Below, piece by piece: positions 25,521 through 60,879 of a DNA stretch of 64,000 nucleotides. The DNA lies in NCBI GenBank assembly GCA_019055375.1, contig JAHQIW010007317.1:124001-188000 (forward strand), written 5' to 3'. The translations under genes and the position numbers were made by a program. Numbering within the stretch: position 1 is the first letter of the stretch; each line of letters begins with the position of its first letter. The notes beneath the pieces are model-generated. The model saw nothing but the letters and a program-made list of their open reading frames with translations. It was not told the DNA's origin and ran no database searches. Source of the stretch: Parelaphostrongylus tenuis. Taxonomy: Eukaryota; Nematoda; Chromadorea; Rhabditida; Metastrongylidae.

Positions 25521-28337
25521 ATGCAACAAGAGGGTAGCAGTTCTGAAGTAAGAGAAGTCACTTTGGGTCTACACACTGTTGTTCCTCTTCCGTCCTGCCC
25601 ACATCTTAGTCAGGTACTTCTTCAGACTGTGCTTCAAAAGTGTGAATTAATTATCACGTAGATCGTTCCATGGTGTGAATGTACTACAGGCCTTTTTTCT
25701 TTGATGTCAATTGCTGTGGTGATAATATGCAGGTGTGACGTAGTGGTTAGAGGTGCCTTCTGACGCACACATAGTCAGTGGTTCGACCTTGCGCACGAAG
25801 CTCATCAAGCCTTTCATACCTCCGTAGTCGGCAGATTTATGTCACACTTCTTTGGGAGGATATCAGCACTGACTTGATACATCGGTAGGCCACTGCGAGT
25901 CATTGTAAACCTGGTAAATATTCAGTCACCCCTAAGGATGCTGATGATGTCGAATGCATGGTACATCCATAAGAACGCCGCAGTTTTCATTCTTTCTCCT
26001 TTTTAGTGTAGTGACAAAGTAAGATGGCCGCCTTGTGATTACGAAGGATTTGTTCTTGCCAGAAGAAAAAAGAATGCTTGTGTTTACTTGATAGTTGTTT
26101 ACAGTTGTTTGAATGTACTTCTGGATACTCCTGAATCAGTTTTATGATACAAGCAGATTATTTGGAAATCATTTCAGACGAGTGATGTTCCTGTAAGTGG
26201 AATAGACGCGAATTCCGTATGCGACATATGCAACATCGCAGCAGAACCTTGGGTTTGTCTTACGTGCTACAAGGTAAGAATTCTCTAAAAGGCTATTCTC
26301 TTGATATCATTTTTCACCTCTTGCTAGCTTCTAAGTATTCTGAACATTTTAAGCAATTTTCTATCCGTATTTCCCAAGTTGCTTATTCTGATTCAGTTAA
26401 TCACTGTTAGGAACAACAATAATAAAATCCACTGAGTTGATCAATTCCGAGGGGCTGATTACTACCTCTGTGTTCCACCTTGGAACTTCAGCACAAATTT
26501 GAATAAGATTTCCATAAATTGCTTTAGAAACGCAGCAGAACTGATTTTGGGCAGGTTTTTCTTTTATCAGCAAAAATATTTTTGCTGATCAATAAATCAG
26601 GTACCCAATTCAGGTACTGTTGATATTATATGATATTATAATGGGAATCAGATAAGACTTTGCTATAATTGAACCGGAATTGAGATACTTAAGAAAAGTT
26701 TTTTACTACGATAGGATCGTGAATCATTCAGTAGATTCCTTCAGAGTGGCGCTCCAACACATTTTGTATTTCGCAACAGTTATTGAACGGTCTAATTACA
26801 ACTTCCTACTGATGTTTTGAACGTTGAGCTCTTGAATAACTACTTGACATTCTATAATTCATAAGGATTCCTAGTTACTTAATCGCTTTCATTGCAATAG
26901 TCAGAACCTCGAGCGAGAGTCAAACCCGAGTTTCACCCTTTTTTGGTGAATGTGCTAAACACTACACAACGTAGCCATGGAAGCTTACTAGCGATATTCA
27001 AACCCAGTAAAATCGTCTAACAAAAGGTTGAAGAATATGTCAAACGCTAAACAAGGTTTTCATCGGCCGACGCCAGTGATAATATCTGTTCTGAATAAAC
27101 GATATAACATGTTTTGAGCCGTTAAGATCTGAGTGCCAGAAAGACGCCTATTTCGTCCTATGTGGGCTCCTCACTAGCATAATCCCTCGGTTTAGTCATT
27201 CACAGTCCCTTGGCTTGCAGTGATTTATTACTTGGCGTCGATTCCGTCATAGAGCAGTATAGCCTCAAGTAATCTGCCGAACCGAGAGACTGTGCTACTG
27301 AGGAGTCCATGTGGGACGAAACATTTGCCTCTCTAGCGCTTAGATTTTAACGTTTCAACCATGTTATATCATTATCAAAGTCTTATCGATTTGAGAAAGG
27401 TCTATAAAATGCGGTCGAATGGAGAGGTATAATCTAATAATAATTAGAAAATTGTATGATTTTGAGTCGTAATGATGCAAAGCTTTGCTGTGGTCCACAA
27501 ATGCTAGCGACTGCTTCTCATAATTGGAAACGGCCTAGCAGGAGGAAGAGCTTCAGTCAAAGCCAAACCCACACGTAATCCTTATTACTTCCATGGATAA
27601 CAAAGTGGGATAACGAGACCAATGAAAGAAGTGTAAAACAGGCATGAGATGACCACTAGTTTTAAGCATCTAAATCCTCACAGCGATAGGATAAGACCTC
27701 TCTTCCAGTGTCTGTTAACTCTTGTGGTATCAAAAGGATAAAAAAGGATAGAGCTCTCGGCGTTAATCAGTTCCCTGAGGGATGCGCAATGCATTCGCCT
27801 TCAATTTTTTTATCTCGTTTGAGGTGATTGAATGCATATCTGACCTTTACAATGACTCGCGGTGGCCTCCCGCTGAACCGAGTCAGTGCTTCTTATCCTC
27901 ACAGACAAGTCTGAGACCTGTCTGGTACCAATTTACCGACCCCGGAGGGATGGATGGCTTGGTGAGCCATGGCCGCGAGATCGAACCATCAACCCTTGTG
28001 TGCGACGCAGAGCACCTCTTACCAATGCGCCACATTCGCTCTTGTATCAAATATTTCACTTATTAAAAAAGATGTACAGTTATGGAAAACCCATAATCGT
28101 AACGAACTCGAGCTCAGGGAGCGATATATTGATGTGGTTAGTTTTCAGGTGCACTGCGGACGTTATGTGCATGGCCATGCACTTATGCATCATGCGGCAG
28201 AACCAACTCATGCGATGTCACTTTCACTTGCCGATCTCTCAGTTTGGTGCTACCCATGTGAAGCATACGTTCACAATGAGAGACTTTTCCCGGCCAAATC
28301 TGCGGCACATTTGAGTAAATTTGGGGAAACCATGTAA
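25521..28337 (+). CDS. HDAC6-type ZnF-UBP ubiquitin-binding protein, unit 1 copy
   Basis: Three phase-0 exons: 25521-25613 (donor GTACTT), 26178-26273 (acceptor TTTCAG, donor GTAAGA) and 28149-28337 (acceptor TTTTCAG, stop TAA). They encode 125 aa. Exon 1 reads MQQEGSSSEV..TVVPLPSCPHLSQ, exon 2 has SVCDICNIAAEPWVCLTCYK, and exon 3 has VHCGRYVHGHALMHH, LADLSVWCYPCEAYVHN and AAHLSKFGE. Zn-binding Cys/His are in place. The residues known in HDAC6 to hold the free C-terminal Gly-Gly of ubiquitin are all kept: Trp of PWVC, Arg of CGRY, and Trp and Tyr of VWCY. An in-frame TGA lies exactly 24 nt upstream of the ATG in both copies. It is therefore either a stand-alone small protein or, if the nearby GTCCAG is an acceptor, an alternative HDAC tail. 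I favour stand-alone. Confidence 0.85.
25733..26010 (+). repeat. SINE-A copy in ZnF-UBP intron 1
   Basis: Head GCAGGTGTGACGTAGTGGTT, B-box GGTTCGACCTTGCGC, and body CTCATCAAGCC and GATCGGTAGGCCACTGCGAG-like strings. The tail has GAATGCATGGTACATCC. It is absent from the corresponding intron of unit 3, so it inserted after the duplication. Confidence 0.8.
26567..26590. repeat. 24-bp perfect palindrome
   Basis: ATCAGCAAAAAT is followed immediately by its own reverse complement, ATTTTTGCTGAT. It lies in ZnF-UBP intron 2 and could extrude a cruciform or form an RNA hairpin. No function is implied. Confidence 0.9.
26905..26985 (-). repeat. tRNA-like repeat
   Basis: On the minus strand GTTGTGTAGTGTTTAGCACA is followed by CTCGGGTTTGACTCTCG, spaced like the A and B boxes of a tRNA. 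There is a short inverted pair TTCACC..GGGTGAA between them. The acceptor ends do not pair, so this is not a tRNA gene. Confidence 0.5.
27080..27375. mobile_element. Fold-back element with paired hammerhead-like cores
   Basis: GATATAACATGTTTTGA (about 27101) and its inverse near 27350 (TTTCAACCATGTTATATC) are the outer arms. A minus-strand hammerhead-like core (GTGAGGAGCCC, then GGACGAAA) sits at about 27150-27180, and a plus-strand one at 27292-27339. A related single copy is at 62940-63020, also carrying AACATGATAACATGTTTCGA. It lies in intron 2 of the ZnF-UBP gene. Confidence 0.6.
27292..27339 (+). ncRNA. Hammerhead-like motif, decayed stem III
   Basis: Stem I GTGCTA (27292-27297) pairs with TAGCGC after the cleavage site. 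The core is CTGAGGA (27298-27304; position 7 is free in the consensus), stem II is GTCC/GGAC with a 5-nt loop, and GAAA follows. The predicted cleavage triplet is CTC at 27331-27333. Stem III pairs poorly, so activity is doubtful. Confidence 0.55.
27728..28050 (-). repeat. SINE-A copy, nearly complete, in ZnF-UBP intron 2
   Basis: Minus strand. It has the tail AGAGCTCTCGGCGTTAATCA (left, + sense) and the head with GCGCCACATTCGCTC (right). It interrupts intron sequence that is continuous in unit 3 at about 47960. The insertion therefore post-dates the duplication. Confidence 0.85.
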
Positions 28338-29450
28338 CGGAACTAATTTCAGTATTTGTTTTTGTCAAATTTAACAGTCACCAATTTTGAGTGATTATAT
28401 TGAATATTTGAATATTTGATTGAGTAAATATCCAGCCGTATCCATAAACATAATTTGAGTGCCATTGAATACTTATCGTATCGTACACAGAAACGATTTT
28501 ATTAAGTCTGCATCAACGCGCTGGTACAGTTCGAGCTCTTAATCAGTGTTTTTGCGCACTGATATTGCTCTAAAAAAGCATTACTTGCTTCATTTCAACA
28601 ATAGTTCGAGGTTATTTTGTAATTTTCGAATGCTGCTGTTTTTTCAACTCTTAGATTGAACTTGTTTTGGGTCTCGAATGGTGTTGTTGTAATATGGATT
28701 TGATACGGTCGTACTTCATGAGTTAATAATTCTACATATTGCGACGTATGAAACTCAACATATCAAAGCATGAGCTAGGGATGTGTTCCCGATGCATGGA
28801 GCAAAAATGTTCAAAGGGTTTCCGAACAGGATCTATGAGTCATCATAGAAGAGAACATCTTGAGCGCCTTTCAAAAACTGCCTTGAGGATTGCAGAACTC
28901 AGCGAGACAGTAACCGTTTGGCATTTGGAAGACGTTGAAAAAGCACAAAAGCTTGATAAGTATAGATAAGTAGATGCTACGAAGACTGCTCTATTTCTCT
29001 TTTGTTGATAAAATTCATTCTGTTGTTAAAATATTAAGAATGATAAAATGTGGATATGCAAGGATTACAGTACAGAATCTCTCCACTCCGAACGAATGAA
29101 ATTGAGAAAGCAGTAATTTGGTTCAAAAAAAGCTGATGGAAAACTAAATTCGTACGCCATCCACAAGCGATGACAACTGTTTTCTAGTGACTCCCAACAT
29201 CTTTGGAAAATCTAGGAAATGTCTCGTGCCGGTAGGAGAAAAAGATTTCTCCAAAATGTTTCATCTGTGAGGTATAAGGTGCGATAATCGCTTAGATTGA
29301 GCAGTGTTACAAGGCTGAATCAACACTCCAAATACAGTGACACCAACAAGCCGAAAAGTGGATCGACGCAATGCAACTAATACTTCTGGAATATTTTTAG
29401 ACTGTGTTAATAATTTTTATAAGATGTGAATGTTCATGAGCTGAAGAATT
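28338..29450. other. ZnF-UBP downstream region to unit 1/2 junction
   Basis: It aligns with 48262-49180 and with 62075-63190. A 76-codon frame at 28739-28969 (with SRCMEQKCSKGF) is not kept open in the same frame in either relative, so I treat it as non-coding. Unit 2 sequence begins at about 29450. Confidence 0.5.
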
Positions 29451-30226
29451 TTTAGTGATTACGGATACTGTGTGAAAAGTGTTACACTGCAAAGGATGGA
29501 AGTTGTCAATTTTATAGGGTGGAAATCGCAGAGATTCTGGATTGTCGAATGAAATGCTCTGGAACTCAATTTAGGACCTCAAATGCTCCAATGGTATTCT
29601 ACGTGGAAGCGTAGGAATCAGCATGTTTCTGACATTACTGTAGCTCAGGGCCAGAACCCATTCTCAAAAGCGACACTATTTGTGTACGGACATTCAAAGG
29701 AAATAGCGACTAGCAGCACTATTGCTTTAGGACTAACTCAAGCTGGCTTTAAACTGGTTTTTGAGTAGTTTGAAATGCAGAAAATAGCTCTCCTGGGGAA
29801 TAATCAGAACGATACCTGCAGTGGAAGTGCTATCGAGTGAACATCAAAAATTTAAGAAGGAACTTTATGGCAATATGTGCTATCGAAAAAAGTGGACCAC
29901 TACCACTTATAATTCTATTTGTCGTCGAGTACTCGTATGCAAACGAATAAACTCGTTCATGTTCCTGGCTTTCCAGAGAGCTCAGTGTTTTTAAAATTTG
30001 TTTACTGATTAGACACGAAAAGCCTATGCGCCTTTGGTGAGGTGTCATTTTTCCCACTATTCTAGCGAGACAAGTTAGAACGCGCATCCTCTGAGCTGCG
30101 ATTAGGATTACGTTCGTCGGTGGTTCATGAGGTAAAGCTGACTCCATGGAGAAATCATTACGCATGAACACACTGTTTCCTCGCGTCACCTTTTACTTAT
30201 GCAGAATTGCTGGATCTGATTTTCTC

Positions 30227-30327
30227 ATGTCAGATATTTTACGGATAAGTGAGAATGGACTCGATTTTATCCCTATTGCTAGCGATGCCTTTGGCATTGG
30301 TGACGAGCCGCAGATTCCGTCCATAAG
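30227..30327 (+). pseudogene. Dead copy of HDAC exon a (unit 2)
   Basis: It begins ATGTCAGATATTTTACGG, as in exon a at 2390. It is 101 nt where the original is 105 nt, which shifts the frame, and the acceptor AG is replaced by TC. A short match to GLDSIFL remains (GLDFIPI). The donor side reads AAGGTGGGT. No downstream HDAC exon is present in unit 2. Confidence 0.75.
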
Positions 30328-30438
30328 GTGGGTTTTATATAATGACGTGACCTTGAGTGTAGCTTTTATTTTCAGCAGTCAGAGAAATGCATCTGTAGAA
30401 TACTGCTCAATACGGCTTCGGCTTTGATAGCAAGGCTA

Positions 30439-30533
30439 TGAATGCTCTCAGATATTGAGCTGATGCCACTATCGACTTTGATTACAAGGATAAGAATGCT
30501 CTCGGATATTGAGCTGATACCACTATCGACTTT
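30439..30533 (+). repeat. Two-copy tandem repeat, about 54 bp
   Basis: AATGCTCTCAGATATTGAGC and AATGCTCTCGGATATTGAGC begin two copies that both continue TGAT.CCACTATCGACTTT. Confidence 0.9.
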
Positions 30534-31718
30534 CGTTCATCTGTTAATATGTGTCATTGTCAGTGGTGTGTTAAACAAATGTTGTCTTATATACAAAGGA
30601 AAACAACTATTTTCAGTAACGGTCTTCATTTAATCTATGTAATCACTGTTTTGGTTTACCCATGAGCTTGAACAAGGTGGTTGCGGATCCTTATTAGGGC
30701 TAATGCTCCGTCTTTGTCTTCCTCAAAAAGCAGTAGTGAACATTTGTAAAGAAAAATTCGTTTAAGCTTACATTTGAGTCAGAAAACGAGTCATAAATGG
30801 TTACAAATCAATTTTGAGCTGTTTTTCCACACTATCTTGTGTTTTTGTCGCAGTAAACATGACAGTGACTACAAAAATGATCAACGGCTGTGCTTACACT
30901 TTTGAGTTGTGGACAATAAATTACGGTTTCTTTCTGTTATTCCGGAACAAATTAAGGATGAAAAGTTTTTGCTAAGCAAAAGCTTTTGTTTTGGTTGAAA
31001 AATGTGTTTGCTTTTCAAGAATTTCTCAACGGCGCTATAAGAAAAAGATAGGTTTTGGTTCCAAACACGCGTACTTCTCGCAGAACAGAACTTTTCTCTT
31101 GAAATGCAAGTAACCATTCGATAGCGCATGTTTCGATGATTCCGACATTGCGCTTAATTCATGGAAAGACCTTTTCACTGCAGTATAGAAGTGAAAATAG
31201 GATAGAGTTTCACATACGCTGCGTGTTTGTTTGTCGGCTAATGTGTGTCCTGACTGTACTGATATGCGACCAATCGATAATGTAGTATGGCGAGAAAATT
31301 GCCTGGTGAAGAGTTCTAGTCCATCTACTGACTACTGCGTTTGTTCGAACTGTTGTTATTTCTTAATACATATTCTTTATATCAATGATTGATGACATCT
31401 TACTAGAGACAAAAGGAGATTTTTCGTCTCGTCACTTTGTTGTTCATACATTCCTTCTTTGAGGTTATTCAGTGCTTTTTGTTATCATGAGCAGAATTCT
31501 CTCGTCTGAAAGGTTCCTTCCATTAATCACAAAAATGATAACACCTAAGGAGAACTAATGCTAGAAATGTTAAAGTGAGAAAGCTTTACCTTTATCTTAA
31601 CTCATCTTTCACCGCAAATCAAATTACCAGCACTAATTGTGTGGGTGGAGCCAGGAACATTCCAAAAAAAAAAATAGAAATTCATGTAGGTCAATTAAGT
31701 TTAAATCCTTCTAAGCGG

Positions 31719-31857
31719 TATATATATACGTATATATACATATACATATATACATATATACATATATATGTATATGTAATATGTATATATATATGTATAT
31801 ACATATACATATATCTATATGTATATATATACATATACATATATATATATATATCAA
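31719..31857. repeat. TATACA/TATGTA microsatellite
   Basis: About 140 bp of interrupted TATA/CATATA repeats, with a related 50-bp patch at 32060-32110. The second patch sits inside a SINE-B-like copy (about 31935-32200). The open frames across them are simple-sequence artefacts. Confidence 0.9.
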
Positions 31858-32254
31858 TGTCGATGTGTGCCTGCCAAACTAAACACGTTTAAAGTTGCTT
31901 GCTGACAATTGTGATAGTTTACATCAATGAGTGGTAGTAGAGCGATGGCATCGGTGGTGCTGTGGTATTACGCACCACGGTATGATTTTGACGCAGGCTC
32001 ATCCCCCACTTCATTCCTAATCTTTTGCATACCACTTAGTACTCTCTCTATCTCTATCCATATACTTATACATATATACATATGTATATACCTAATAATA
32101 TACGCATACAGGATGTGATGCTCATCGTAACGCGCTAGGGTTCGAGCTCCACCCTCCAACACTCTGCGGGAGTCAACAAGAAAGGCTCGATCAGTATTCT
32201 ACATCACTCAAGAGATGACGGAAAACGAATTGCACGCTGGAAGTATTGGGTTAC

Positions 32255-33012
32255 TTCTACATATACAGTTGATACACTGATACATACACAGTTGAGTAAA
32301 CACCAGTAATGACAAAATGAAGGAGACAAATTGACAGATTTCGCAGTCGATACCTCCTTCAAATTTGGAAAACGTACTAATAGGTTAGGGAAAAAGTTCT
32401 GGCAAAATACTTGCAAGTGTTTTGTGTGTCGGCCATTTTTTGTGTTTTTGGGCTCGTTTGAATGCCCGTCTTCTCCTGCGTTGATTGGTATATATACTTA
32501 TTTCAATATGGAGTTAACAAGCGAGCAAATTAGGTTGTTGATGATGCACGAATGGCTGTTGTGTTCAAATGCAACGGTGGCAAGTGAACGCTTTGATGCA
32601 TAAATCAATTTTATGCTCGCTGAATCGATTTTTTGCCGAAGAAGTGGCAGGAAGTGCTTAGTGTTGAAGGGGAGTACTTTGACTATCAGTTTTGTCTTTG
32701 CTCGGGTGTGATAGGTGCATAAATAGATGTTTTACAAGCATTTTCTCAGAACTTTTTCCCCAACCTATTACTTGAATCATTTTGTTTTAAGGAAGAAATG
32801 CCACTTTTGTATGCTACTGATATAGTTTACGTGAGGAAATGCAACCCTACTTGGAATCCGTATGGGACTTTCACTTGAACGTATGCACAAATAATCTAGC
32901 AAGTCGAAAAAATGCGAAATATGCAACAGACGGCAAAACAAACGGCGAGTGAAAACGTTTCGAGAATGGTGGAATCTCATTCTCGTCTCCATTGTCGAAA
33001 TTCGCATTTTCA
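32255..33012 (-). pseudogene. TLC-domain pseudogene (unit 2)
   Basis: On the minus strand, 33012-32835 matches exon 1 of the TLC genes (GAGATTCCACCATTCTCGAA, then a CGTTTGTTTTGCCGTC segment) but with frame-disrupting indels. Positions 32356-32255 match exon 2 (GAGGTATCGACTGCGAAATC, then CAATTTGTCTCCTTCA) and then degrade. Exons 3-5 are absent. A deleted mariner sits in what was intron 1. Confidence 0.8.
32378..32770 (+). mobile_element. Internally deleted mariner element, about 393 bp
   Basis: The terminal inverted repeats are TAGGTTAGGGAAAAAGTTCT at the left and the inverse of TAGGTTGGGGAAAAAGTTCT at the right, bordered by TA. Inside are a transposase N-terminus (MELTSEQIRLLMMHEWLL, about 32509-32600) and, after a deletion, the C-terminal stretch KKWQEVLSVEGEYFD (about 32635-32685). 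It is non-autonomous. The type of TIR and the SEQIR start fit hookworm-type mariners. Confidence 0.85.
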
Positions 33013-33059
33013 TAGTCATAAGTCAGAGTTGCATATAGTTTTGACTTTGTTGTATTACT

Positions 33060-33330
33060 AGTGGGGCGAGCTGGCGCAGTGGTTAGTAATGCAGTGTGTC
33101 AGAAAGCGAGATGATAAGCGGTGAGCTATTTCGATCGCCATCTTTAGAGCAATCCATTCACTAAATCCAAATTCGGGTTGCTCCGAGATTGCAAGGAGAT
33201 TTGTCGAGTCAGCATTTTACGTCAAATGAGGCAGACGAATCCCTTAGGCAGCAGTCGAAAAAACACGCTAAATGTTTGAAGACGATGCATGAAGCGCTGC
33301 GATCTGCACAGTAAAATATGGTGACGGGTC
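33060..33330 (+). repeat. SINE-B-related repeat
   Basis: Head GGGGCGAGCTGGCGCAGTGG, middle GCTCCGAGATTGCAAGGAGA, tail GCGCTGCGATCTGCACAG. It is related to the copy at 6540. Confidence 0.7.
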
Positions 33331-34399
33331 ATGTGAATAGGATAAAATAAGAAATCATTGGTTGCACTTGTATAAGAAATATACTCATTAAAAGCCATGT
33401 AGTAACTCGTGAATTGAAAATTTATTTTGGTTATCAACTAAGCAATTGAGTGTTTTTTGTAGAACACGTGGTGATGCGTCGTTATATATTGATCAGGGAA
33501 CTATATACTACTTTATTCTTCGAGGCTTTTCTTCGATTCATCAAATCAGTACAAAAAATGTTAGTATCTGCAGTATAGAGCTCATAAGTTCCAGCAAGAC
33601 TGCTTCGAAAACGTGAGATATGTTGCTTACTCTAATGGCGTAGACCAAATGATCCATATTCGTGTTACCTTCAATTTACGTGTTTCTAATGAAATTTGCT
33701 CTCGCCGACAATCCTTTGAGGTTGATTGTGTATAAAAAGAATTCGAATAGGCAAGGAGACCTTATCGGAGTTGGAAAAGGAAAAGGCGACAGTTGTAGAG
33801 CATGAGAGGTGTGATAGCAGTTGTAATTGCTCCACTTATACATCCACAGCCTTTCACTCACATAGCATCGGCGGCCAAGGAAAGGAGCGAAGTCAAATCA
33901 GCCTCCTTTCACAACGGCGCTTGTCACGCAACTGGAAGCGTTATCAAATGTTCTTCGAAAGGTTTCCCACGATTGCTCGTTCTCGAGGTGATTCGTCCAT
34001 CGGTCATTTTATAATTACCAATTCATAGACTCAAGCAAGAGATTCCGAGATTGTCGAGTTTGTGAGAAGGAGTTTGGAAAACCAAAAAAGAAAGCAGCGA
34101 TTTGAAGTTCATGAATCTGCACTGGTCTGCATTAATGTATGCATGCCATTTTCTGTTGGTGAACTCCGATAGATCGGTTTGCTTCCGATTCCAGCGATGT
34201 TGAATTGTGTATTGAGTTCTCCTATAATTTCTTTTTCATTTCAACATTTTTGTTAATTCAGTTGTTATCTATGTAGAAAAATTATTTAGTCAACATACAA
34301 TTCAATGTCAGTGATATGCAACATTTGCTGGATAAAAGTTGGATGCCTTCATTTCACATAATGAGGCTCGCAATCAAATAAGTCGGTCAGGACACTTTG

Positions 34400-34740
34400 A
34401 GTTCATTTTAGCCTTTCAGCTTTTTCTCCCTCACAGCTGCTTCAAAGGCGCAAGAGATGATAATCAGATTGAGCAATATCAGGGCTATACGCTGTAAATG
34501 TGATACTGTGAAGAAGCCCAATTTTTCCAAAATGTGGCGAGTCAACTTTGCAATGTGAGTTGAGTGATGGCCAACTTCCGAAGTTATTTCCAGTAGCGTC
34601 GGCATTGGTTGCCTGCATGTTTTCAAGCTTTTCGAAAACACCAATATTTTCAAGCTTTTCGAAAACACCATGTCCTGCCGATCCCAGAAAATCAAGTACA
34701 TAATTTTCCGAGAAAGGTCGTGGTCAGGCATTGTATAAGG
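34400..34740 (-). mobile_element. Mariner transposase fragment
   Basis: On the minus strand, HIAKLTRHILEKLGF is followed in a shifted frame by AYSPDIAQSDYHLLRL. This is the mariner catalytic block (normally P-H-T-A...Y-S-P-D-L-A-P-S-D-Y-H-L-F) broken by frameshifts. It also contains a direct repeat of about 27 bp (TTTTCAAGCTTTTCGAAAAC at 34618 and 34647). It interrupts unit 2 sequence homologous to about 9.9 kb of unit 1. Confidence 0.8.
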
Positions 34741-38267: not shown

Positions 38268-39217
38268 TCACCGCCATTGTTTGCCAAGAAAGCCGTCGGC
38301 GATAAGTATTCTGTAGAAGAGCATGACGTTGATAACAGTGAAGATAGATGGTCCGCCGAGGACAACACAAGCGAAGAATGGGTGCATTCGATTGACGTGA
38401 TATAGTGCCCATCGTATAAACAACGCTGGTGCTACGAAACGACACACAACCATGCTGAAATATGGTTCGCTACTCTTAATAACCCGAAGAAAACCTAACC
38501 GTTTTTCCAAAGCTAAATAAAATGGCCTAATACAAAATTATAACTTTTTTAAAGGATAGCAACTATCACAAACAAAAACCACATGATTACCAATCCAATG
38601 TTCAGTTATTGAATGGGTTACGGCATTCTGGAAGCTACTAGTAATGTATTAATAATGGAGAAAGTTCAGGTGTTCAGTTACTTCTATGTTGAAATTTCCA
38701 AAACACCGTAAACAAGTCACTATATAGCTCGTAAATGTTGAGGATTGACATTCTCATGATCCACTTGAGCAACTCAACGAAGGACTTGTGAAAAGCTTAG
38801 TATGTTGGAAATATTACTTTGCTTGATACGACTGAAATATAGGTTTGGTAACTTTTCCCTAAGTGATGGAGGTGTTTAGATAACTGGGTTGTGGACAACC
38901 TAATCTTTACAGGCTCTGAAATGTCTTGATTCTAATTACTACTCCTCAGCAAAATTTTTGTTCAGCTCCGCGATTCAATACATTTGCGACAAAGAGCACA
39001 TTCTATTTCATCAAGATTGAAAACTTATACCTTAGGCAGGGACTAAACTCGCATCTCATCTTTAGCAAGGGCGATGGCTCACGACTCCACTAAGGCTACT
39101 ACTGTGCTATCACTCTGTCTTTGATATGAGGCATTGCAGTTGTCAGCAACTACCCGTGAACACGTTTAGTCTGATTAGTACATATTGGCATTGAATGAAG
39201 TTTTGCTGACAGCTATT

Positions 39218-39262
<45 letters not shown>

Positions 39263-40845
39263 ATTCGAGCGTTGAACACACTCAATTATTGGCTTCACGG
39301 CGGTTGTTACGTAGATTACATGCTCGCACCTTTTACATAATTGAATTTTCTCTTGAGGAAAAATGGCTCGCGCTACATAACAGGCTAAAAGAACTGGTGG
39401 TAACAAAATTAACTTTCTGATGACCACCTGGTTAAAGCGCGGATTGTCATTTCATGAGATAGTATTTTTTAGTAATCAGTAATTAGTAGAGAAGTCGCAG
39501 ATTAATTTATTGAAACTGTCCTTATACTCTACGATTCAAAATGGGCAACAGGATTGAAAAAGACTCGTGTGGCCCTAAAAAATCACTTTGAGGAGCTGTG
39601 TGCAGCGAAACCTGTACTCACGTTCGCCAAACTACGTAAACATCACTGTTCTGATGGATGTTGGAAAATCCCTTTCTACAAATCTTGGGAAAATAATCGA
39701 TATTATTAAAATTCGTCTGTAAAGACTAGCCAATGTCGCGGATTCAAATTTTCGCACTGTTATTAGTTTTTAAGATGAAACTTGTGAAACCTACGAGACG
39801 ATGTTGAATCTAACTACTGCGCTATGAAGTGTGGGATGTTGTATGGACAGTCCAGAGATTCGCATTATCGTACGTGCATGTAAGAAAATGCTGAATAGTC
39901 CATCATTTGAGCAGTTTCAATACGTAAATCACCTTTCAACGGTAAGTAAAGTTTAACACCAACCTGTTACCTTCCTGGAGCAAAGCCCAATAATTCGCCA
40001 GCAAGAACTTACGGGGTAGAATCCCACAAAGCAGAACAAAACTGGCCACAACGTGATGAAGGAATAATTCAGTTGTTTGTGTGGACCGCTCATGATTAAT
40101 CATATCGAATGCATCATGCACAAAATAAGCTGAAATATCGCTTTGCAAAATTTCCACACCTAAGGAATTACGTCCGAAATGTCACATTTTAATTTTGCTC
40201 TTGCGTTTTTGCCTTGTACCGCATGGTTAGAAACAGCTTTTAGGCAGCCGTAATAGTGATATTAAACTGATTAGTTGGATTTTTGTAACAATTAAAAAAC
40301 TGACAGTATCACTTCCTTGTGTTATATCGCCATAAGTGACTGACTGAACAATCCAAAAAAGTATTTCCCGTTCCATTTTGCATTTTATGTATGTGATTTT
40401 GGTTGTAAACTAACCAATTGAAATTATTGGTAGATGAACAGCCCATGGCTGATACCAATGGATAATGTTTTCAAACATCTCTTTTGTGTACATCATGAAA
40501 AACGTAGTTGACCAGATACCGGCAATCAGAGAATGAAGGAGACTAACTGACAAATTTTGCAGCCGATACCTCCTACAATAATTGAGATAAGAGATACGTG
40601 TCATTTCAGTTTGATGACGGCATACTCATCTTTGTACTCCTTCAAATGATATAACACAACTAAGAAAGAACATACTTGAAGTGCGGGTAGGTCTGCCACG
40701 TAAATGTCTTCACAAATAAACTAGCGAGCCGAAAACATATGAAATAAGCAATGAACGGCACGAAAAACGGCGGATGAAAAAGTTTTGAGAATGGTGGAAT
40801 CTCAAATTCGGCTCCTCCATCGTTGAAATTGACATTAACTGGCAT
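38268..40845 (-). CDS. TLC-domain membrane protein (TLCD1/2-like), copy 2
   Basis: Five minus-strand exons: 40845-40676, 40572-40415, 40129-39964, 39890-39795 and 38454-38268. They join to 259 codons including the stop (258 aa). Exons 1-4 match copy 1 exactly in length (170, 158, 166 and 96 nt) and phase. Key stretches are [68 protein letters not shown] and SIFLHARTIMRISG. The last exon is strongly hydrophobic (SIFTVINVMLFYRILIADGF). The C-terminus is seven codons shorter than copy 1 because CGG TGA ends the frame; that site (GTGAGT) could alternatively be a splice donor. The frame is intact and the His pair is retained. The expected donor of exon 4 is the weaker GTAGGT. Confidence 0.9.
39219..39261. 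repeat. (TA)n microsatellite
   Basis: About 21 uninterrupted TA units in the last intron of TLC copy 2. Confidence 0.95.
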
Positions 40846-41218
40846 TTAGATGATCTGAAGAGTTTCACTGAACTAGTAATTCAGTGTGCCAAAAACTATA
40901 TGATTTTGGCATTGCATTATTAGTTGTACTTTGACTGAAGCTATAAACGATGAAAACAGTCTGGACACTCGTGAGTTCAAAATTTACTGTGAATCAAATT
41001 GACAATACAGTGCTTCCTGTACAGAACGTGAAGTGATTTGTCGATACATAACAGTTGAAATTAAACTATTAGGTTGGACTTTTTTTTGCAATAAATTTAC
41101 ATTTTGGTTTTTTCATCGTGTTTGATGTCATTCGAAAGCTCATAATCTCGCGATCCTAAAAAGGTAAGCCGTTTTATTTTTTGTAACTGTAGCGTAGAAA
41201 AAATGTTGTGCAAAGTGA

Positions 41219-41291
41219 GCGTCGGTAGTTTAACGGTTCAGCACGCGCTCCCGGAAAGAGTGAGATCTGGGTTCGAATTCCAGACGACGCA
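41219..41291 (+). repeat. Family C tRNA-like repeat head
   Basis: It folds as a tRNA: acceptor GCGTCGG/ACGACGC (6 of 7 pairs), D arm, anticodon stem CGCTC/GAGTG with loop CCGGAAA, and T arm CTGGGTTCGAATTCCAG. C replaces the invariant U33. The 3' flank CACTCTACATTATTGGGTT and GGCGGTCAAATAAA is shared by family members at 44114, 55853, 57858 and 58154. This points to an amplified tRNA-derived element and not a working tRNA. Confidence 0.65.
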
Positions 41292-41369
41292 AATGTTTTT
41301 GCACATCACTCTACATTATTGGGTTGTTATAAGATCACACCATTGCGAGAGGCGGTCAAATAAATGAAT

Positions 41370-41790
41370 TACGACTGATTCTTGTGTCTGTACGAATTTT
41401 TCTCACTTCGGAATATACACAGGCGCTTTATCATATTTTTCAACTTTGGTAAGCGTTCTCCTGCCATGGAATGTTGCAGAGGCCTGAAGAGACGGTAATT
41501 ACTTGGATCAGCATCTGGGCTATACGATGGATGAATTAGACGTTCCCACCCTAAGTCTTCAATTTTTCGCAATGTGAGACGCGCAATATGTGGACAAGCG
41601 TTATCTTAACGCCCCTTCGACAAGGCTGTCGCAGCCGATTCTGAGGTGTTAGTGTCACCTTAACGAAGTTTTCTGGCCCAACTTTGAGTAGTTCGTCGAT
41701 CAACCACCTTGTTGGCTTTGTGTCGCATCGGAGGTAGAAGGGCCCAAGTGAAACAGTAAAGAGGCGTTCACGACTTAAGTTTCGAAGTGT
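41370..41790 (-). mobile_element. Mariner transposase fragment
   Basis: On the minus strand, ACPHIARLT, then EDLGWERLIHPSYSPDADPS, then NYRLFRPLQHSMAGERLP. This is the mariner catalytic block including the Y-S-P-D and S-x-Y-x-L-F motifs. Frameshifts and a stop separate it from upstream transposase-like sequence (WALLPPMRHKANKVV). No TIRs were found. Confidence 0.85.
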
Positions 41791-42429
41791 TCATTCTAAA
41801 GTAAAAGAAAATTTCATACCGTTACGAAAAATAATATAATTCAAATACTGAGATTCTCGAATCCACAAGCTCTCGAATGACGTAAAACACGATAAAAAAA
41901 GACCACGAAATGAATTTATTCTAAATAAATAAAGATAACAAGATATACGGTAGAACTTAGTTACCAACCCAATGAGAAAAAATTTATGCAATTACAAAAA
42001 ATAAAATGACATGCTTATCTAGAATCTCGAGCTCACGAGCATTCGAATGACATCAGACAGATAAAAGAACAATAAATAAATGTACTGTAAATGGAAAAAA
42101 TAAAAAAATACGACAGAACTTAGTTTCCAACCTGGTAATCTACGCTCATAGATTTTCCTTTGATATTCCTTCAGTTCATGATATCAATATGGAGGCCTAT
42201 TAATATCTGAACTATAGAGCTCGTGAGTTTCAGTAAGACTACTGCAAAAATGTTTCACTGTATTCTAAAAGACGCGTAAACTAGGAGATCCACATCGAAA
42301 TCACCTGCAGTTTCTGTTGTTTCTAATGACTTTTAAATTCGTCACAACAATCCAACAGAACTTGATTTTCAAATAAAAAGCCCATTCAGACAACAAATGG
42401 GGCCCTGTCGAAGGAAGTAATAGAGGAAA

Positions 42430-42620
42430 TGACGACCGACTGTTGTAGCATGATGGGTGGGCGAGGTGTGTAATGGCAGTTGTATCTGCCGTACTAGGTC
42501 ATGCACCGACCCCCACATCAACCGTCGGCGTCGGAGGGGAAAGAAATGGGGCAACGGATAACTGGAGGAGATGGATCAGTCCTAACCCTCACTCCCACCC
42601 TCGTTCGCGACGATATTTGT
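42430..42620. promoter_or_regulatory. Conserved block upstream of TLC copy 2
   Basis: Unit 3 counterpart of 9220-9420, with GCATGATGGGTGGGCGAGGT, GTAATGGCAGTTG and GGAGGAGATGGATCAGTCC. The + strand frame through it (131 codons from 42473) has no counterpart in unit 1, where the long frame is on the other strand. I therefore do not call it coding. Confidence 0.4.
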
Positions 42621-44113
42621 CTTATTATAAAGAACTTTATCGCGTGCTCTTCGTATCAAGCTGCCCTTCGGCTTCAAGGCCAGCGACTCGCCTGCACATC
42701 AAGATGGACTTCCGGATTCAGAACAGAATCCGGAGAATTGACGATAAAAAAAAGAATTCTCGTGTAGGAACGTTACGACTAAGAATCGATTCGGCCTGTT
42801 CTTCCTTATCTTCATCTCAGGAAGGGCGTGTGAGAACAGAGAAAGTTGTGTATAGAGTAGCGAGATGAAATCACGTTATGTGCTCATTGCTGATTAAGCC
42901 AAAAGAACGATGTTAGCAGAAATCATTCTATCGGCTATTTCAGTGTCTTCGTCGTCATCTTTAGAGACGGAGATTCGAGTGACTGATTTACTATTTCGAA
43001 ACTGAAACCGTATTTTCGTCTGCATTTGGCACTAATGTTACAAAACCGTGATCACAGCTTGATTTGAGCATTCTAGGGTTGCCCAGCCGTTTTCACTTAC
43101 GATTTTGAATGAGATTTCCAAAGCGTTTTTACCATTTATTGGTCATTGCTTCAAAATCACTGAATGATTTACAAGAAAGGGTATATACTATACGGATCCT
43201 AACACTTCTTGCATTCGATTCGCTTCCGTGTACTGATCATCCATGAAGCTCTTCAAACCTTTAAGTGTGAGTTCGACTGCTACTTGAAAATTCTCTTCCT
43301 CATTGATGCCGCTACGTACCCATCTAGTCAAAACCTTTCTCAGGTCCTGGATTAATTCATATTGGGAGTCCCCATGTCGAATAGAGGGACGGAGCCGATC
43401 ATAGGTGAGCCTAGTGCAAAATTCTCCATTAACAAAAAGCAGCACGCTTGATAAGTTTGTATGACATGACCGAACCAGCTGTCGATTCAGTAAATATTCA
43501 AAAGCACTACTCACTCTTTCAGAGTAAATTACACCTCATAAAATATTTTCGTTTATCAGAATCGTACGAGTCTTGTGTAGACGCCTTTGGCTGTGTGGAA
43601 TCCAGTTTTCGCTCTATTCGCAATGCTATCAAAGTGCTGGTTTTGTCTCTGTTATGAGAATAAAGCGAAAATCAAACAGTATAGCTGTGATTTTTCCAGC
43701 TCTCTATCATTTCGCAAGACATTTTCAACCTAATCATTCAATTTTTTTGTCTCACTCCCTCTTTTGTTTGATTTATTGCAAAAGTCCTGTTTTAATTATG
43801 CCTTAGTGTTCCGTATTCTCTCGAACAGTTGGGCAACGGCCTTAATAATAATTGACGATAGGTTGCCCGTTAACGTTTGTCTTAGAGGATCTCATGTCTA
43901 TCACAACTTGCTTAGAAACACTATAGCATCGCTTCCGTTTGAGGAATGTCTATAGAAGTATTGACTATAGGCTCCGTTTCTGCGTCTTTATAGCATCTGA
44001 ATTTTTGGAAAAATGTTCTGATTTCGTCTTTTTTAGGAAGTTTCTATGTTATTCCTTAAGTTGTTTACAGTAAAAACAAAGTCCAATAATGTAGAGTGGT
44101 GAGTAAAAACACT

Positions 44114-44186
44114 TGCGTCAGCTGGGATTCGAACCCAGACTTCACTCTTTTCGGGAGCGCATGCTGAACCGTTGCACTACCGACGC
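44114..44186 (-). repeat. Family C tRNA-like repeat head
   Basis: On the minus strand the acceptor GCGTCGG/CTGACGC pairs fully (one wobble). The anticodon stem is CGCTC/GAGTG with loop CCGAAAA, and the T arm is CTGGGTTCGAATCCCAG. C at position 33 again argues against function. The element body continues to about 44420. Confidence 0.7.
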
Positions 44187-44309
44187 CCGTTTCACCATCA
44201 CTCTTTCTATGCTACAACGCGTTATATGTCAACAGCCATTCGTCTGCGGTATGGCGTGGGCAGTCACTATCGACATTGAGCCCACTTTTGCTAACAGATA
44301 TCGGGTTTC

Positions 44310-44515
44310 AGTAATTAATTAGAATTCATTTTATTTGACCGCCTATTGCGGTGTATGATGGTTCAATAAACCCAATAATGTAGAGTGGTGTGCAGAAACC
44401 ACAGCATATTATCTTATTTATTATCCGATAGTTTCAAACACCACTCTACATTATTGGGTTTATTGAAGCATTATACTACCGCAATAGGCGGTCAAATAAA
44501 ATAATTTCTGGTTGA
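44310..44515. repeat. Inverted repeat of the family C body
   Basis: TTTTATTTGACCGCCTATTG..CAATAAACCCAATAATGTAG at 44327-44395 faces its near-perfect inverse at 44443-44511, separated by about 45 bp. It is either head-to-head insertion or a fold-back derivative. Confidence 0.9.
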
Positions 44516-44519
44516 TAAT

Positions 44520-45300
44520 CAGAAACAAAATCGTTATTGTTATGATTTGGAAAACGACTTCTTACGACGACATCCTATCACATCGAGTAGTTGCAGTCTC
44601 TTACGTGCTCCATACATGCGCACTTTTTGTGGTGAAGTATGATGGGCAGGAGGTATCATATGAGGCTTGAGAGCAGCTCCACGAAGGGTTGATGGTATGA
44701 TACGGTGCGCGAGTACCACGGCCACTCTCACTCCTAGGCTTCGGCAAGAAGACATTCACTTTCCACTGTTGCTGGTTGGAGCCTTTGGCGACATCAAACA
44801 CCAAAACGTGACCCTCCTTGGTATGGCACACACCAACAGCACTAGATGGGCAACAACTGCCGTCCGCAGGGAGTTTGAATGGAAACTACAAAAACTACAA
44901 TCGTCAAACGAGCTGCTTCCCCGGTGGGAGGGGGAAGACAGTAGTTGCAACGTACGGAGCAAGTTTTCAGTGATCATCTCGTAGCGCGAAAAAATGTACT
45001 ACATACAGTTTATGTTCACAAGGAACGTATTCAATGAGATTCGAAGAATGATATGCTGTCGGTTTTTAGTCATCGGTTGGTGTTCATACACATGCAAAAT
45101 CTGAGCCATTTCGATGAACCCACTACTCACTCTATTATTTTTTGTTTTGCTTGATCGACTAAGTGTGTGGCTTTTTGCTAGTGATAATAGGGAATTACCG
45201 CATAAAGTACGCTTCTCGGGGATTCGTATCAAAATTCTGCTAGCCACGCCGATTAGTTCCTAATCTAGTGGTGCCTGGAAAGAAAGAAAAATCTAGGATT
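44520..45300. other. Unrecognised GC-richer block replacing HDAC exons in unit 3
   Basis: It lies exactly where unit 3 should carry the HDAC catalytic exons. Overlapping open frames on both strands (44667-44984 + and 44601-44831 -) have no recognisable motif and no copy elsewhere in the window. It may be transposon-derived or filler from the deletion event. Confidence 0.3.
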
Positions 45301-45607
45301 TTTATAATCGCTTTAGACTCTACTGATTAAAATACTGATTTCTTCAGTATCTCAGAGCTTTTCATTATTGAAAATCGTATTAACTAAAGTGACTGATACA
45401 TAAACCTCAGAGTAACTGCTTCTCATCATTTATACATTCATTCTCAGGGAATTTCAGTTGTCAGTTGCAATTCAGCCTAGTTTTTCAATCGTTTGTTTAG
45501 TTCAGAGCAATAGGCCTCTCTTTCCGCGTTACATAATTGTGAAGAAATCAAAAAATTTACTGCATGTAACTTGTATCTAATTCTCAATCACTCATATAAT
45601 GAAACGG

Positions 45608-45830
45608 GGAGCCGTGGGCAAGTGGTTGTGTTGCTCGTCGTCGTAGCATGACGCGGAGTTCATCACCCGCAGCCAACACTCTCCAGCAATCAACGCAGTC
45701 CACACGAACGCCTTGTTGACGGGACAGCCAGGCTATTCTCGAGATTGCAAAGAGACCTGCTCAACCAGTAACCTACGACATTCAAGAAGAAGACGAAAAA
45801 CCAGTTCAATGCTAGAAGTACTAAACTAAG
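45608..45830 (+). repeat. SINE-B copy
   Basis: Head GAGCCGTGGGCAAGTGGTTG, middle GACAGCCAGGCTATTCTCGA, tail TTCAATGCTAGAAGTACTAA. Confidence 0.85.
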
Positions 45831-46269
45831 TGTTTTCATCTTCGCAGAGTGGAGTTTGGTGATGCCTATTCTCCTATCCAAAGGAATGGAGGACTATGAC
45901 CGTGGAATTCACTAGAATCAAAGTGACAATCAATCCAGTGTGGACTACAGAACGCCTTCATTGCATTAGAAGCATAAGCTTCTATGTATGGAAGAATTTG
46001 ATAATCAGTTTTATTCCTTGAATATTTGGGCTTTAGTTAAGCTCAAAATTTGCCATAAGTCAGGCTTATTCACCTTCAAAGACTCATAGATCAACTATTT
46101 ACGTGGATTCAAGACTGAACTTGTTTTCGAGGAAGCGAAGCATGAATCTCCAGTCTTCACGTGGTTATCATTCTGAGCGAAAACATCTCACAGATTTCAC
46201 TGAGTCTACCAGCGAAGCGGTCGGTCAGTCGATTATATGTCCTTCTGAGAAAAAGTCCAGTTTTACTCA

Positions 46270-48261
46270 ATGCAACAAGAAGGTGGCAATTCTGAAGTAG
46301 GAGAGGTCACTATGGGTCTTCACACTGTTGTTCCTCTTCCTTCCTGCCCACATCTAAATCAGGTACTTCTTCGAAACCTTTTTTTCGCTTCCACAAGTGC
46401 GACTTATGTATCATGCAAACCATAATATGAGCTAAGTGTTCTTGCTGTTGAAGTAATTGCGCACATTCAGTCTAACCGTTGTAATCATTCCATGACGTGA
46501 ATCTACCGTAAGCCTTTTTGCTTCAATCTTGACTGCTGCAACGACCAAACAATCGCTATGTGATAATGAAAGATATGCTCGTTTTAGAAAAATGCTTGTG
46601 ATTTTTGGTTTTCCAGTCGTTTGGATTTATTTCTGAGTACTCCTGAGTTATTTCCATGATACACACAGAATACCTGAAAATCATTTCAGACGAGTGATGT
46701 ACCTGTAACTGGAATAGACGCAAATTCCGTATGCGATATATGTAATATCGCAGCAGAACCGTGGGTTTGTCTTACATGCTACAAGGTGAGCACCAACTAA
46801 ACGTCAATTTTTGAATACGATTTCTCAGTTGTTGTTAGCTTACAAATATTCCGGTATTTGGGACAATTTTTTATTCGTGTCTGTCATCAAGTACTGGCTC
46901 TTTTCAATCTGGTGCTGTTACGAAGTCCGATAATGAAGCTCAATGTGTAGAATAATCTCAGTGAGACTGATCACTAAATTTTTGTTACACTCTGATAACT
47001 ACATTTCTCTCAGCTCTAAATCAAGCTCAAAACTGGACAGGGTTTTTAATAGTTTAGACGATGTGGACCATTGAAGGGATGTGTGGCATGGAAAGAAGAA
47101 GCATTGCAGCATCTATAACGTTTCTATATAGGTTGTTTCCTGTCCGATGATCCATTTTGGCCCATAAAACTTCTATGTATCTATTAGGTTGAGAGAAAAA
47201 TACCCTAACACCCTCTGAAAAAATCAAAGTTTATACATAAATTCAATTGAAAACATCAATAATTATTCTTCAAAATAAAGACCATCATTGTCCATGATCT
47301 TCTGCAACGATCTGCAAACTTCCGGATCTACTCGAAATTGCTATTCTTTGTGCTTTGAATCAAAAAACTCCTGAATTGCTCCTCAACTTCATCAAATATC
47401 ATGGGTCGGCGTCCGCGCAAAAAATGTTCCATTATGTGGAAAAGATCTTGAATTGAACGGCGCAGCAGCCGAGCTAAAAGCTGAGTGCGGCAAGACTCGA
47501 CTCCCTCCAATTCATCAAACTTTTCCATAGCCTTCTTTGCGGTGTGTAATATGGCATTGTCTTGCCGAAACAACGCGCGCTTTCAACGAATTAATGTCGG
47601 GTATTTTTCCTTCAACTCATTGCAGATTCGGTCCAGCTGTTCCTGCTAGAGTTCGGCTCTGATGGCTCGAGCATTCGGAACTAGTTCGAGATGCAAGAAA
47701 CCTTCAAAATTCCACCAATTACAAATCATAACCTACAAAGCCTTAGTTCAGTTCAAAAGGCTGGCGACTGCTTGCGGTCGCTGGGGAAGGGCCCAACACG
47801 AGGAAAAGAGCCCTAGTCAGAGTCAACCCACGCACTCTCTATTATCTCCATGGGTGAAAAAGTAGGATGACGAGACGAATGATGATACTGGTTATTCGCA
47901 ACCAAGTCCTTACATCGTTAGGGTCATATCTCTTCTACATATATCTGTTAACTCTTGGGTTGTCAGATGGTTTTTTTTATTGAAGACGATATACAGCCAT
48001 CAAAAACTGATATCGTAATGAACATATTGAACCTTGAAAAGCAATATATCTTCGTGTTAGTTTCAGGTGCATTGTGGACGTTATGTGTACGGCCATGCGC
48101 TCATGCATTATGCGGCAGAACCAACTCATGCGATGTCGCTTTCACTTGCTGATCTCTCAGTTTGGTGCTACCCTTGTGAAGCCTATGTTCACAACGAGAG
48201 ACTTGTGCCGGCCAAATCTGCAGCACATCAGAGTAGATTTGGAGAGACTGCTTCGCAATGA
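46270..48261 (+). CDS. HDAC6-type ZnF-UBP ubiquitin-binding protein, unit 3 copy, no HDAC attached
   Basis: Three exons, 46270-46362, 46690-46785 and 48067-48261, encode 127 aa. Exon 1 and 2 lengths and phases are identical to unit 1. Key stretches are MQQEGGNSEVGEVTMGLHTV, PLPSCPHLNQ, SVCDICNIAAEPWVCLTCYK, VHCGRYVYGHALMHY, SVWCYPCEAYVHN and AAHQSRFGE. The Zn ligands and the ubiquitin-tail pocket residues (Trp, Arg, Trp, Tyr) are all kept. By hand count, exon 2 differs from unit 1 at 8 bases, 7 of them synonymous. The aligned part of exon 3 has about 13 synonymous against 5 replacement codons. That is the footprint of purifying selection on a working protein. There is no HDAC catalytic exon between 37 and 46 kb, so this copy must function, if it does, without a deacetylase. 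A mariner sits in intron 2. Confidence 0.85.
47184..47690 (-). mobile_element. Truncated mariner in ZnF-UBP intron 2 (unit 3)
   Basis: The left end is TA followed by TTAGGTTGAGAGAAAAATAC, a mariner-type TIR. On the minus strand it encodes EQLDRICNELKEKYPTLIR, a stop, then RQDNAILHTAKKAMEKFDEL and, after a frameshift, HIMEHFLRGRRP. The N-terminal half and the right TIR are missing. It is absent from unit 1. Confidence 0.85.
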
Positions 48262-51420: not shown

Positions 51421-51460
51421 ACATAGAAAAATGTTGAAGAATAAGTGGTGGTGCCAATGT

Positions 51461-54757: not shown

Positions 54758-54854
54758 GAAAAATAATTATTGTTGTTTTCAATTGATTTTATGTATAAAA
54801 TTAGAATTGTCAGCAAGTATCAGGGAACATTTTCCTTAACCTTATAAAATATCA

Positions 54855-60875: not shown

Positions 60876-60879
60876 CAAT

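What the first reader, a model, noticed from the sequence alone, without database searches (positions are those of the whole stretch)
25521..48261. HDAC6-type ubiquitin-binding ZnF-UBP as a stand-alone gene, duplicated and apparently under purifying selection
Seen: two three-exon copies (25521-28337 and 46270-48261) with the same exon structure, the same in-frame ATG (MQQEG) and an in-frame TGA exactly 24 nt upstream of that ATG in both. The HDAC frame has its own stop at 23880, 1.6 kb before copy 1. Copy 2 has no HDAC catalytic exon in its unit at all. Exon 2 of the two copies differs by 8 bases, 7 synonymous; the aligned part of exon 3 has about 13 synonymous and 5 replacement codons. All ubiquitin-tail pocket residues are kept. 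Known: in animal HDAC6 this finger is the C-terminal domain of the deacetylase and binds the free Gly-Gly end of ubiquitin. Inferred: the finger has split off as a protein of about 125 aa that could sense free ubiquitin tails without deacetylase activity.
Basis: partly seen in the sequence, partly recalled or inferred. Interest (0 to 1): 0.88.

Follow-up and report, generated by a model that had tools for sequence, protein, structure and literature searches.

The report
HDAC6 ubiquitin finger as separate genes
In a parasitic roundworm, the small finger that grips free ubiquitin tails, normally the end of the deacetylase HDAC6, is encoded by two compact units of its own, and the second stays intact although no usable deacetylase was found beside it, so the finger probably works alone.

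Summary
The observation largely holds. The window is Parelaphostrongylus tenuis: copy 2 encodes database protein KIN20_036057 letter for letter. Both three-exon copies encode an intact HDAC6-type ZnF-UBP. They are an old tandem duplication (dS 0.44) under purifying selection (dN/dS about 0.1). A broken exon-3 relic lies near 61.9 kb.

HDAC6 upstream ends in a ZnF-less tail exon (23733-23882) that matches the Cylicocyclus HDAC6 tail and, weakly, ZnF-less Caenorhabditis proteins. Other Caenorhabditis HDAC6 proteins carry the finger after the same GFQ residues. So the finger is HDAC6's own 3' module, apparently made autonomous.

Two reader arguments weaken. The HDAC stop belongs to that conserved tail. 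The TGA before the ATG probably lies outside the exon, because the best-scoring acceptor in both copies is 9 nt before the ATG, and from there copy 1 could still join HDAC6 in frame. Copy 2 is the stronger stand-alone case. No transcript evidence was available.

The parts
25521..25613 (+). copy 1 exon 1 (start MQQEG, begins the finger: CPHL)
26178..26273 (+). copy 1 exon 2
28149..28337 (+). copy 1 exon 3 with stop; 125-aa product
   Evidence: PF02148
46270..46362 (+). copy 2 exon 1
46690..46785 (+). copy 2 exon 2
48067..48261 (+). copy 2 exon 3 with stop; 127-aa product identical to KIN20_036057 (P0001)
   Evidence: PF02148; fold
25506..25511 (+). GTCCAG, best-scoring splice acceptor of 13 AGs in 25380-25521, 9 nt before the ATG, in frame with the last catalytic HDAC exon
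46255..46260 (+). same GTCCAG before copy 2, best-scoring of 13 AGs in 46120-46270
2390..2494 (+). HDAC6 catalytic exon, first one in the window (upstream exons lie outside)
   Evidence: P0030
11787..13915 (+). HDAC6 catalytic exons 11787-11853, 11917-11984, 13245-13334, 13401-13577, 13678-13773, 13834-13915
   Evidence: PF00850
23154..23421 (+). HDAC6 exons 23154-23265 and 23334-23421 (ends ...CLRGFQ)
23733..23882 (+). likely true HDAC6 terminal exon without finger (KCFAPKM...EKMNL, stop 23880)
   Evidence: 0 of 2000 shuffles reach its score against the Cylicocyclus tail
30227..30327 (+). relic of the HDAC exon 2390-2494 in unit 2 (frameshift, acceptor lost)
61899..62061 (+). third, broken copy of exon 3; no exon 1 or 2 found in 48300-64000

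Best explanation
In P. tenuis the ubiquitin finger of HDAC6 has become a self-contained three-exon unit with its own start codon, lying behind a ZnF-less end of the HDAC6 gene. A tandem duplication of the segment made a second unit, in which the HDAC exons are lost or broken while the finger was kept. Most likely each unit gets its mRNA 5' end at the conserved acceptor 9 nt before the ATG (in nematodes typically by spliced-leader trans-splicing; inferred) and makes a protein of about 125 aa whose pocket holds the free Gly-Gly tail of ubiquitin, so that it binds unanchored ubiquitin, or competes with other readers of it, without deacetylating anything. Shown: exon structure, HDAC6-type fold and pocket residues, purifying selection on the pair, decay of the HDAC exon in unit 2, a conserved ZnF-less HDAC6 tail. 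Inferred: separate transcription, trans-splicing, ubiquitin binding, cellular role. Copy 1 may in addition serve as an alternative 3' end of HDAC6.
For: Intact finger in both copies; copy 2 model matches HDAC6-ubiquitin structures 3phd and 3gv4 at target TM 0.95-0.96. dN/dS about 0.1; exons differ by 8-13%, introns and flanks by 24-36%. HDAC exon relic in unit 2 is broken and more diverged than the finger exons (24 of 101 against 41 of 373, p 0.0018), and no further HDAC match appears in 28.4-64 kb. HDAC6 ends in a ZnF-less tail shared with Cylicocyclus. Stand-alone finger protein and ZnF-less HDAC6 are both annotated in P. tenuis and in Cylicocyclus. The acceptor 9 nt before the ATG is the best-scoring of 13 in each copy.
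Against: No transcript was seen. Caenorhabditis briggsae and brenneri carry finger and deacetylase in one protein, and copy 1 can be joined to HDAC6 in frame. The acceptor matrix rests on 14 sites, and in copy 1 a second AG scores nearly as well (3.90 against 4.62). Several short nematode finger proteins look like truncated gene models. Copy 2 has more replacement changes than copy 1.
Confidence: 0.6

Rival explanations
1. Alternative 3' ends, not separate genes: copy 1 (and perhaps copy 2) are alternative terminal exon sets of HDAC6, giving a ZnF-less and one or two ZnF-bearing deacetylases, as Caenorhabditis proteins suggest.
For: Last catalytic exon to acceptor 25512 is open and in frame; that acceptor scores best in both copies. 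C. briggsae and C. brenneri proteins leave the same GFQ into a linker and the finger. A paper calls F41H10.6c the long isoform of C. elegans HDAC-6 (PMC2809763, passages).
Against: The 9 bases that would be translated before the ATG are poorly conserved. The Caenorhabditis-type linker was not convincingly found in 23.9-25.5 kb. For copy 2 the nearest HDAC exon is 22.8 kb upstream, past copy 1.
Confidence: 0.25
2. Copy 2 is a silent or recently dead duplicate that still looks intact.
For: Using Cylicocyclus as outgroup, 7 of 11 replacement sites changed on the copy 2 side and none on the copy 1 side; its tree branch is longer (0.071 against 0.011).
Against: Open frame, good splice sites and about 12 replacement substitutions where about 127 would be expected without selection. 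That count covers both branches together, so relaxed selection on copy 2 late in its history is not excluded.
Confidence: 0.1
3. The duplication is an assembly artefact or two alleles placed side by side.
For: The DNA came from two pooled worms and the reads were long and noisy (PMC10940269).
Against: Synonymous difference of 0.34 (uncorrected), collinear but unequal units, and loss of the stretch that holds most HDAC exons are not what alleles look like.
Confidence: 0.03
4. The stand-alone finger belongs to an ancient ZnF-UBP family separate from HDAC6.
For: Short finger proteins also appear in Branchiostoma and Saccoglossus.
Against: In the 30-row tree the nematode stand-alone fingers group with the fused Caenorhabditis ones (92/86), away from the Branchiostoma fingers; Saccoglossus was dropped from that tree and the deep backbone is unresolved.
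Confidence: 0.02

Closest known systems
Animal HDAC6 ZnF-UBP domain
   Same: Sequence, fold and ubiquitin-tail pocket residues; same lineage in the tree.
   Different: Encoded apart from the deacetylase, with its own start; copy 2 has no usable HDAC exon detected beside it.
Caenorhabditis HDAC6 (hda-6) proteins with two kinds of end
   Same: ZnF-less end and ZnF end both follow the same GFQ residues; the ZnF-less tails resemble each other.
   Different: In C. briggsae and C. brenneri models the finger is fused through a linker; in P. tenuis no such linker was convincingly found.
Cylicocyclus nassatus finger protein (P0002, 126 aa) and HDAC6 (P0031, 890 aa)
   Same: Same split layout and similar start; both rows list a contig of the same length.
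   Different: P0031 has two deacetylase domains, the P. tenuis model P0030 one; no second finger copy was seen for Cylicocyclus, but its DNA was not searched.
Branchiostoma finger protein (P0010, P0011, 169 aa)
   Same: Finger without deacetylase; Branchiostoma HDAC6 models P0043, P0048 and P0071 lack PF02148.
   Different: Outside the nematode group in the tree, so a separate event if real; gene models only.

Membership tests
HDAC6-type ZnF-UBP domain | Pfam zf-UBP (PF02148) above its cut-off | tested here: met
   69.9 and 70.8 bits, cut-off 22.7
HDAC6-type ZnF-UBP domain | Closest to HDAC6 fingers rather than USP fingers | tested here: met
   HDAC6 chains 112-125 bits, next USP49 48.7 bits; fold search likewise
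HDAC6-type ZnF-UBP domain | Zinc-ligand Cys and His positions | tested here: met
   12 Cys/His columns (C26 H28 C46 C49 C58 C61 C66 H73 H77 H84 C97 C100) invariant in 13 aligned proteins; that these are the ligands is recalled
HDAC6-type ZnF-UBP domain | Pocket for the free ubiquitin Gly-Gly end | tested here: met
   Human G1154, R1155, W1182, Y1184, Y1189 (PMC10424181, passages) correspond to G67, R68, W96, Y98, Y103 by the alignment; residues only, not binding
HDAC6-type ZnF-UBP domain | Binds free ubiquitin C-termini | not testable with these tools
   needs a binding assay
HDAC6 protein (deacetylase plus finger in one chain) | Finger joined to the deacetylase, copy 1 | tested here: inconclusive
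   ZnF-less tail exon present, but an in-frame join through acceptor 25512 is possible
HDAC6 protein (deacetylase plus finger in one chain) | Deacetylase exons in the same unit, copy 2 | tested here: not met
   only one broken relic exon and no further tblastn match in 28.4-64 kb; joining to the HDAC exons of unit 1 is not excluded
Ancient separate ZnF-UBP paralogue | Stand-alone fingers cluster together, apart from HDAC6 fingers | tested here: not met
   fused Caenorhabditis fingers nest inside the nematode group; Branchiostoma fingers fall elsewhere (30-row tree; backbone weak)

The most novel reading that the evidence does not exclude
HDAC6 has undergone real gene fission in strongylid nematodes (and perhaps independently in amphioxus), starting from an alternative 3' end. 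The freed finger became a small dedicated reader of unanchored ubiquitin tails, kept in two selected copies in P. tenuis, so that ubiquitin sensing and deacetylation are separate, independently regulated proteins.
Probability: 0.4. Interest if true: 0.68.

Novelty: new variant of a known kind. Interest (0 to 1): 0.5.

Why it matters
HDAC6 is the textbook case of two activities in one chain: removing acetyl groups, and catching free ubiquitin tails so that protein waste can be carried to the aggresome. An animal that encodes the catcher apart, and keeps an extra copy with no usable deacetylase found beside it, would let one ask which functions need the two joined. It also suggests a route for gene fission: an alternative last-exon module gains its own start and is then duplicated. 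If stand-alone fingers prove common in nematodes, work that uses worm HDA-6 as a model of HDAC6 aggregate handling has to check which protein carries the finger.

Tried and rejected
Ancient independent ZnF-UBP family: not favoured by the tree. Neutral duplicate pair: rejected by dN/dS and by the contrast with introns, flanks and the HDAC relic. Database end of P. tenuis HDAC6 (KKRLYVG..., acceptor 23683): no better than shuffles against Cylicocyclus or two Caenorhabditis tails (1561, 1331 and 1166 of 2000 shuffles as good), whereas the 23733 tail does match (0, 8 and 1 of 2000), so the database model is probably wrong there; the splice score of 23733 itself is low (0.66). Linker exon between 23.9 and 25.5 kb: tblastn with the two Caenorhabditis linkers gave one match that runs across the TGA into exon 1 (E 3.6e-5, carried mostly by the start of the finger), read as inconclusive. 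An open in-frame HDAC join was tested from one donor only (23421) to the 11 AGs in 25400-25525; one of 11 is open and in frame (25512) and two more are in frame but meet the TGA.

One search (finger region inside a long padded query, lengths about 407-1295) returned 9 rows, none named as a nematode, but it missed the fused nematode proteins P0035 and P0036 that one search found, so its silence is not used as evidence. could return only proteins of about 69-219 aa, so it is biased towards stand-alone fingers; 10 of its 20 rows name nematodes and several of these (P0003, P0005, P0012, P0015) look truncated or mis-started. One search lists the best 120 of 7391; five rows name nematodes and one more (P0033, unnamed) looks like Caenorhabditis; 2 of these 6 carry PF02148. 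Tree: I chose 35 of the 149 held proteins plus copy 1; 6 were dropped because my domain pattern missed them (Saccoglossus and five fused ones). dN/dS: the YN00 method failed, NG86 and ML ran. Literature: ten searches; in their listings I saw no description of a nematode HDAC6 finger as a separate gene; most subscription papers are not held. Papers seen as passages only: PMC2809763, PMC10424181, PMC10366101, PMC5934874, PMC11075575; PMC10940269 parts 1 and 2 of 3. The own-genome search did not complete, so copies elsewhere in the genome are unknown.
Full report
What the window is. Copy 2 translates to a 127-aa protein letter-identical to database protein P0001, named hypothetical protein KIN20_036057 of Parelaphostrongylus tenuis. 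The HDAC exons give residues of KIN20_036054 (P0030). Both database rows list a contig of 411,340 bases. The window is therefore from the deer meningeal worm; its genome paper is PMC10940269 (parts 1 and 2 of 3 read).

Observation. Both units have the stated exon structure, a shared ATG, GT-AG introns between codons and a TGA starting 24 nt before the ATG. Both proteins match Pfam zf-UBP at 69.9 and 70.8 bits (cut-off 22.7). The best solved relatives of copy 1 are HDAC6 fingers (112-125 bits), well ahead of USP49 (48.7 bits). An AlphaFold model of copy 2, on an alignment of 13 proteins, has mean pLDDT 87.6 with a low-confidence N-terminus and matches HDAC6 fingers bound to ubiquitin or its tail peptide (3phd, 3gv4) at target TM 0.95-0.96 and rmsd 1.2. 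In human HDAC6, R1155 and Y1184 hold the terminal glycine and G1154, W1182 and Y1189 contact ligands in the pocket (PMC10424181, passages); by the alignment these are G67, R68, W96, Y98 and Y103 here, all kept.

Duplication and selection. Window self-comparison shows a collinear segmental duplication. 2.15-2.86, 4.2-4.6, 7.2-8.9, 9.2-9.4, 11.1-11.4 and 24.1-28.3 kb correspond in order to 30.0-30.7, 38.2-38.6, 39.3-41.0, 42.4-42.6, 43.7-44.0 and 45.3-48.25 kb. The stretch 11.4-24.1 kb, which holds the remaining HDAC exons of the window, has no collinear counterpart (only dispersed repeats match). The one HDAC exon that has a counterpart (2390-2494) is a relic at 30227-30327: 24 of 101 bases changed, a 3-nt and a 1-nt deletion, the latter shifting the frame, no acceptor AG, a donor GT remaining. 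tblastn of HDAC6 against 28.4-64 kb gave only that relic, at E 0.99.

Over 124 aligned codons the fingers differ at 37, of which 26 are synonymous and 11 replacements. dN is 0.043, dS 0.442, ratio 0.097 (NG86) or 0.111 (ML); Fisher p 6.8e-12. Divergence is 10 of 93, 8 of 96 and 23 of 184 bases in the exons, against 0.235-0.355 in introns and flanks; the uncorrected synonymous difference of 0.34 is in the range of introns and flanks, so there is no sign of recent gene conversion. The HDAC relic against the finger exons (24 of 101 against 41 of 373) gives p 0.0018, assuming one duplication event. Copy 2 seems to hold most replacements: Cylicocyclus agrees with copy 1 at 7 of 11 sites, with neither at 4 and with copy 2 at none; of the other outgroups, P0003 and P0012 agree with copy 2 at site 38 and P0015 at site 110. 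Five of the ten changed codons of exon 1 are replacements, so the N-terminal tail is loosely constrained. A third exon 3 at about 61.9 kb is frame-broken, without exons 1 and 2 in 48.3-64 kb, and shows what an unselected copy looks like.

Where the finger comes from. A tree of 30 fingers puts its 11 nematode rows, stand-alone and fused, in one group (92/86), with fused Caenorhabditis briggsae and brenneri inside it and the two P. tenuis copies as sisters (96/87). The finger is thus HDAC6's own, not an old separate family. The deep backbone is unresolved.

How HDAC6 ends. After the last catalytic exon (...CLRGFQ, 23421) an acceptor at 23733 gives KCFAPKM...[21 protein letters not shown] and the stop at 23880. 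This matches the end of Cylicocyclus HDAC6 (score 89, 0 of 2000 shuffles as good) and, weakly, the ends of ZnF-less Caenorhabditis-type proteins P0034 and P0033 (43 and 37; 1 and 8 of 2000). The end given in the database for P. tenuis matches none of the three. The Caenorhabditis proteins that carry the finger leave at the same GFQ into a linker. PMC2809763 (passages) calls F41H10.6c the long isoform of C. elegans HDAC-6; which ends the isoforms have was not seen. So the ZnF-less end looks like an alternative terminal exon shared by rhabditine nematodes, which would explain how a finger module could become independent; this is an inference from proteins, not from transcripts.

Is copy 1 really separate? 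With a small matrix from 14 model acceptors, the AG 9 nt before the ATG ranks first of 13 in copy 1 (25512, 4.62; next 25441, 3.90) and first of 13 in copy 2 (46261, 4.17; next 2.86). Its GTCCAG is kept within a poorly conserved stretch. If it is used, the TGA is not in the mRNA, and the last catalytic HDAC exon joins copy 1 in frame. The same site would suit a spliced leader (from general knowledge of nematodes, not tested). The sequence therefore allows both a stand-alone and a fused product for copy 1. For copy 2, with no usable HDAC exon detected in its unit, stand-alone use is the simpler reading; joining from 22.8 kb away is possible but strained.

Other organisms. Of 20 short proteins found with copy 1, 10 rows name nematodes, several of them apparently truncated models; that search could only return short proteins. 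Cylicocyclus shows the same split layout, and both its rows list a contig of the same length. Of 6 nematode or nematode-like HDAC6 rows in the 120 listed, 2 carry PF02148. Branchiostoma HDAC6 models P0043, P0048 and P0071 lack PF02148, and Branchiostoma has a 169-aa finger protein (P0010, P0011): a possible parallel split, a lead only.

Verdict. Two conserved HDAC6-type finger units, at least copy 2 most likely a stand-alone gene; a new variant of a known kind. Interest 0.5: solid as comparative genomics, but function and even separate expression are unproven, and the stand-alone proteins already sit in databases as hypothetical or UBP-type domain proteins.

Noticed in passing
7660-8904 (-) and 39701-41017 (-); partial at 32286-33008: A TLC-domain gene on the opposite strand lies inside the first HDAC6 intron of the window and is duplicated with it. 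The ORF of unit 2 passes the Pfam cut-off (PF03798, 28.7 bits against 24.6), that of unit 1 is just below (22.9).
   Followed up: partly
23683-23882: The database HDAC6 model KIN20_036054 probably uses the wrong acceptor (23683) for its last exon; the 23733 reading matches relatives.
   Followed up: yes
2390-23882: The P. tenuis HDAC6 model P0030 (436 aa) has one deacetylase domain, whereas Cylicocyclus and Caenorhabditis HDAC6 proteins have two; a first domain may lie upstream of the window.
   Followed up: no
P0010, P0011, P0043, P0048, P0071 (proteins, no window place): Amphioxus HDAC6 models without the finger next to separate 169-aa finger proteins; P0011 and P0043 list contigs of different length (20,367,708 and 43,860,960). 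Possible independent split.
   Followed up: partly
50966-51196 (-): Reverse transcriptase fragment (PF00078, 33 bits).
   Followed up: no
47182-47620 and 53687-54846: Related inverted repeats (77-81% identical), one inside intron 2 of copy 2; their ORFs resemble mariner-type transposase by recall, and the one tested had no Pfam hit.
   Followed up: no
41219-53276: Six tRNA genes predicted (Ser, Phe, His, Ala, Thr, His), all in the second half of the window.
   Followed up: no
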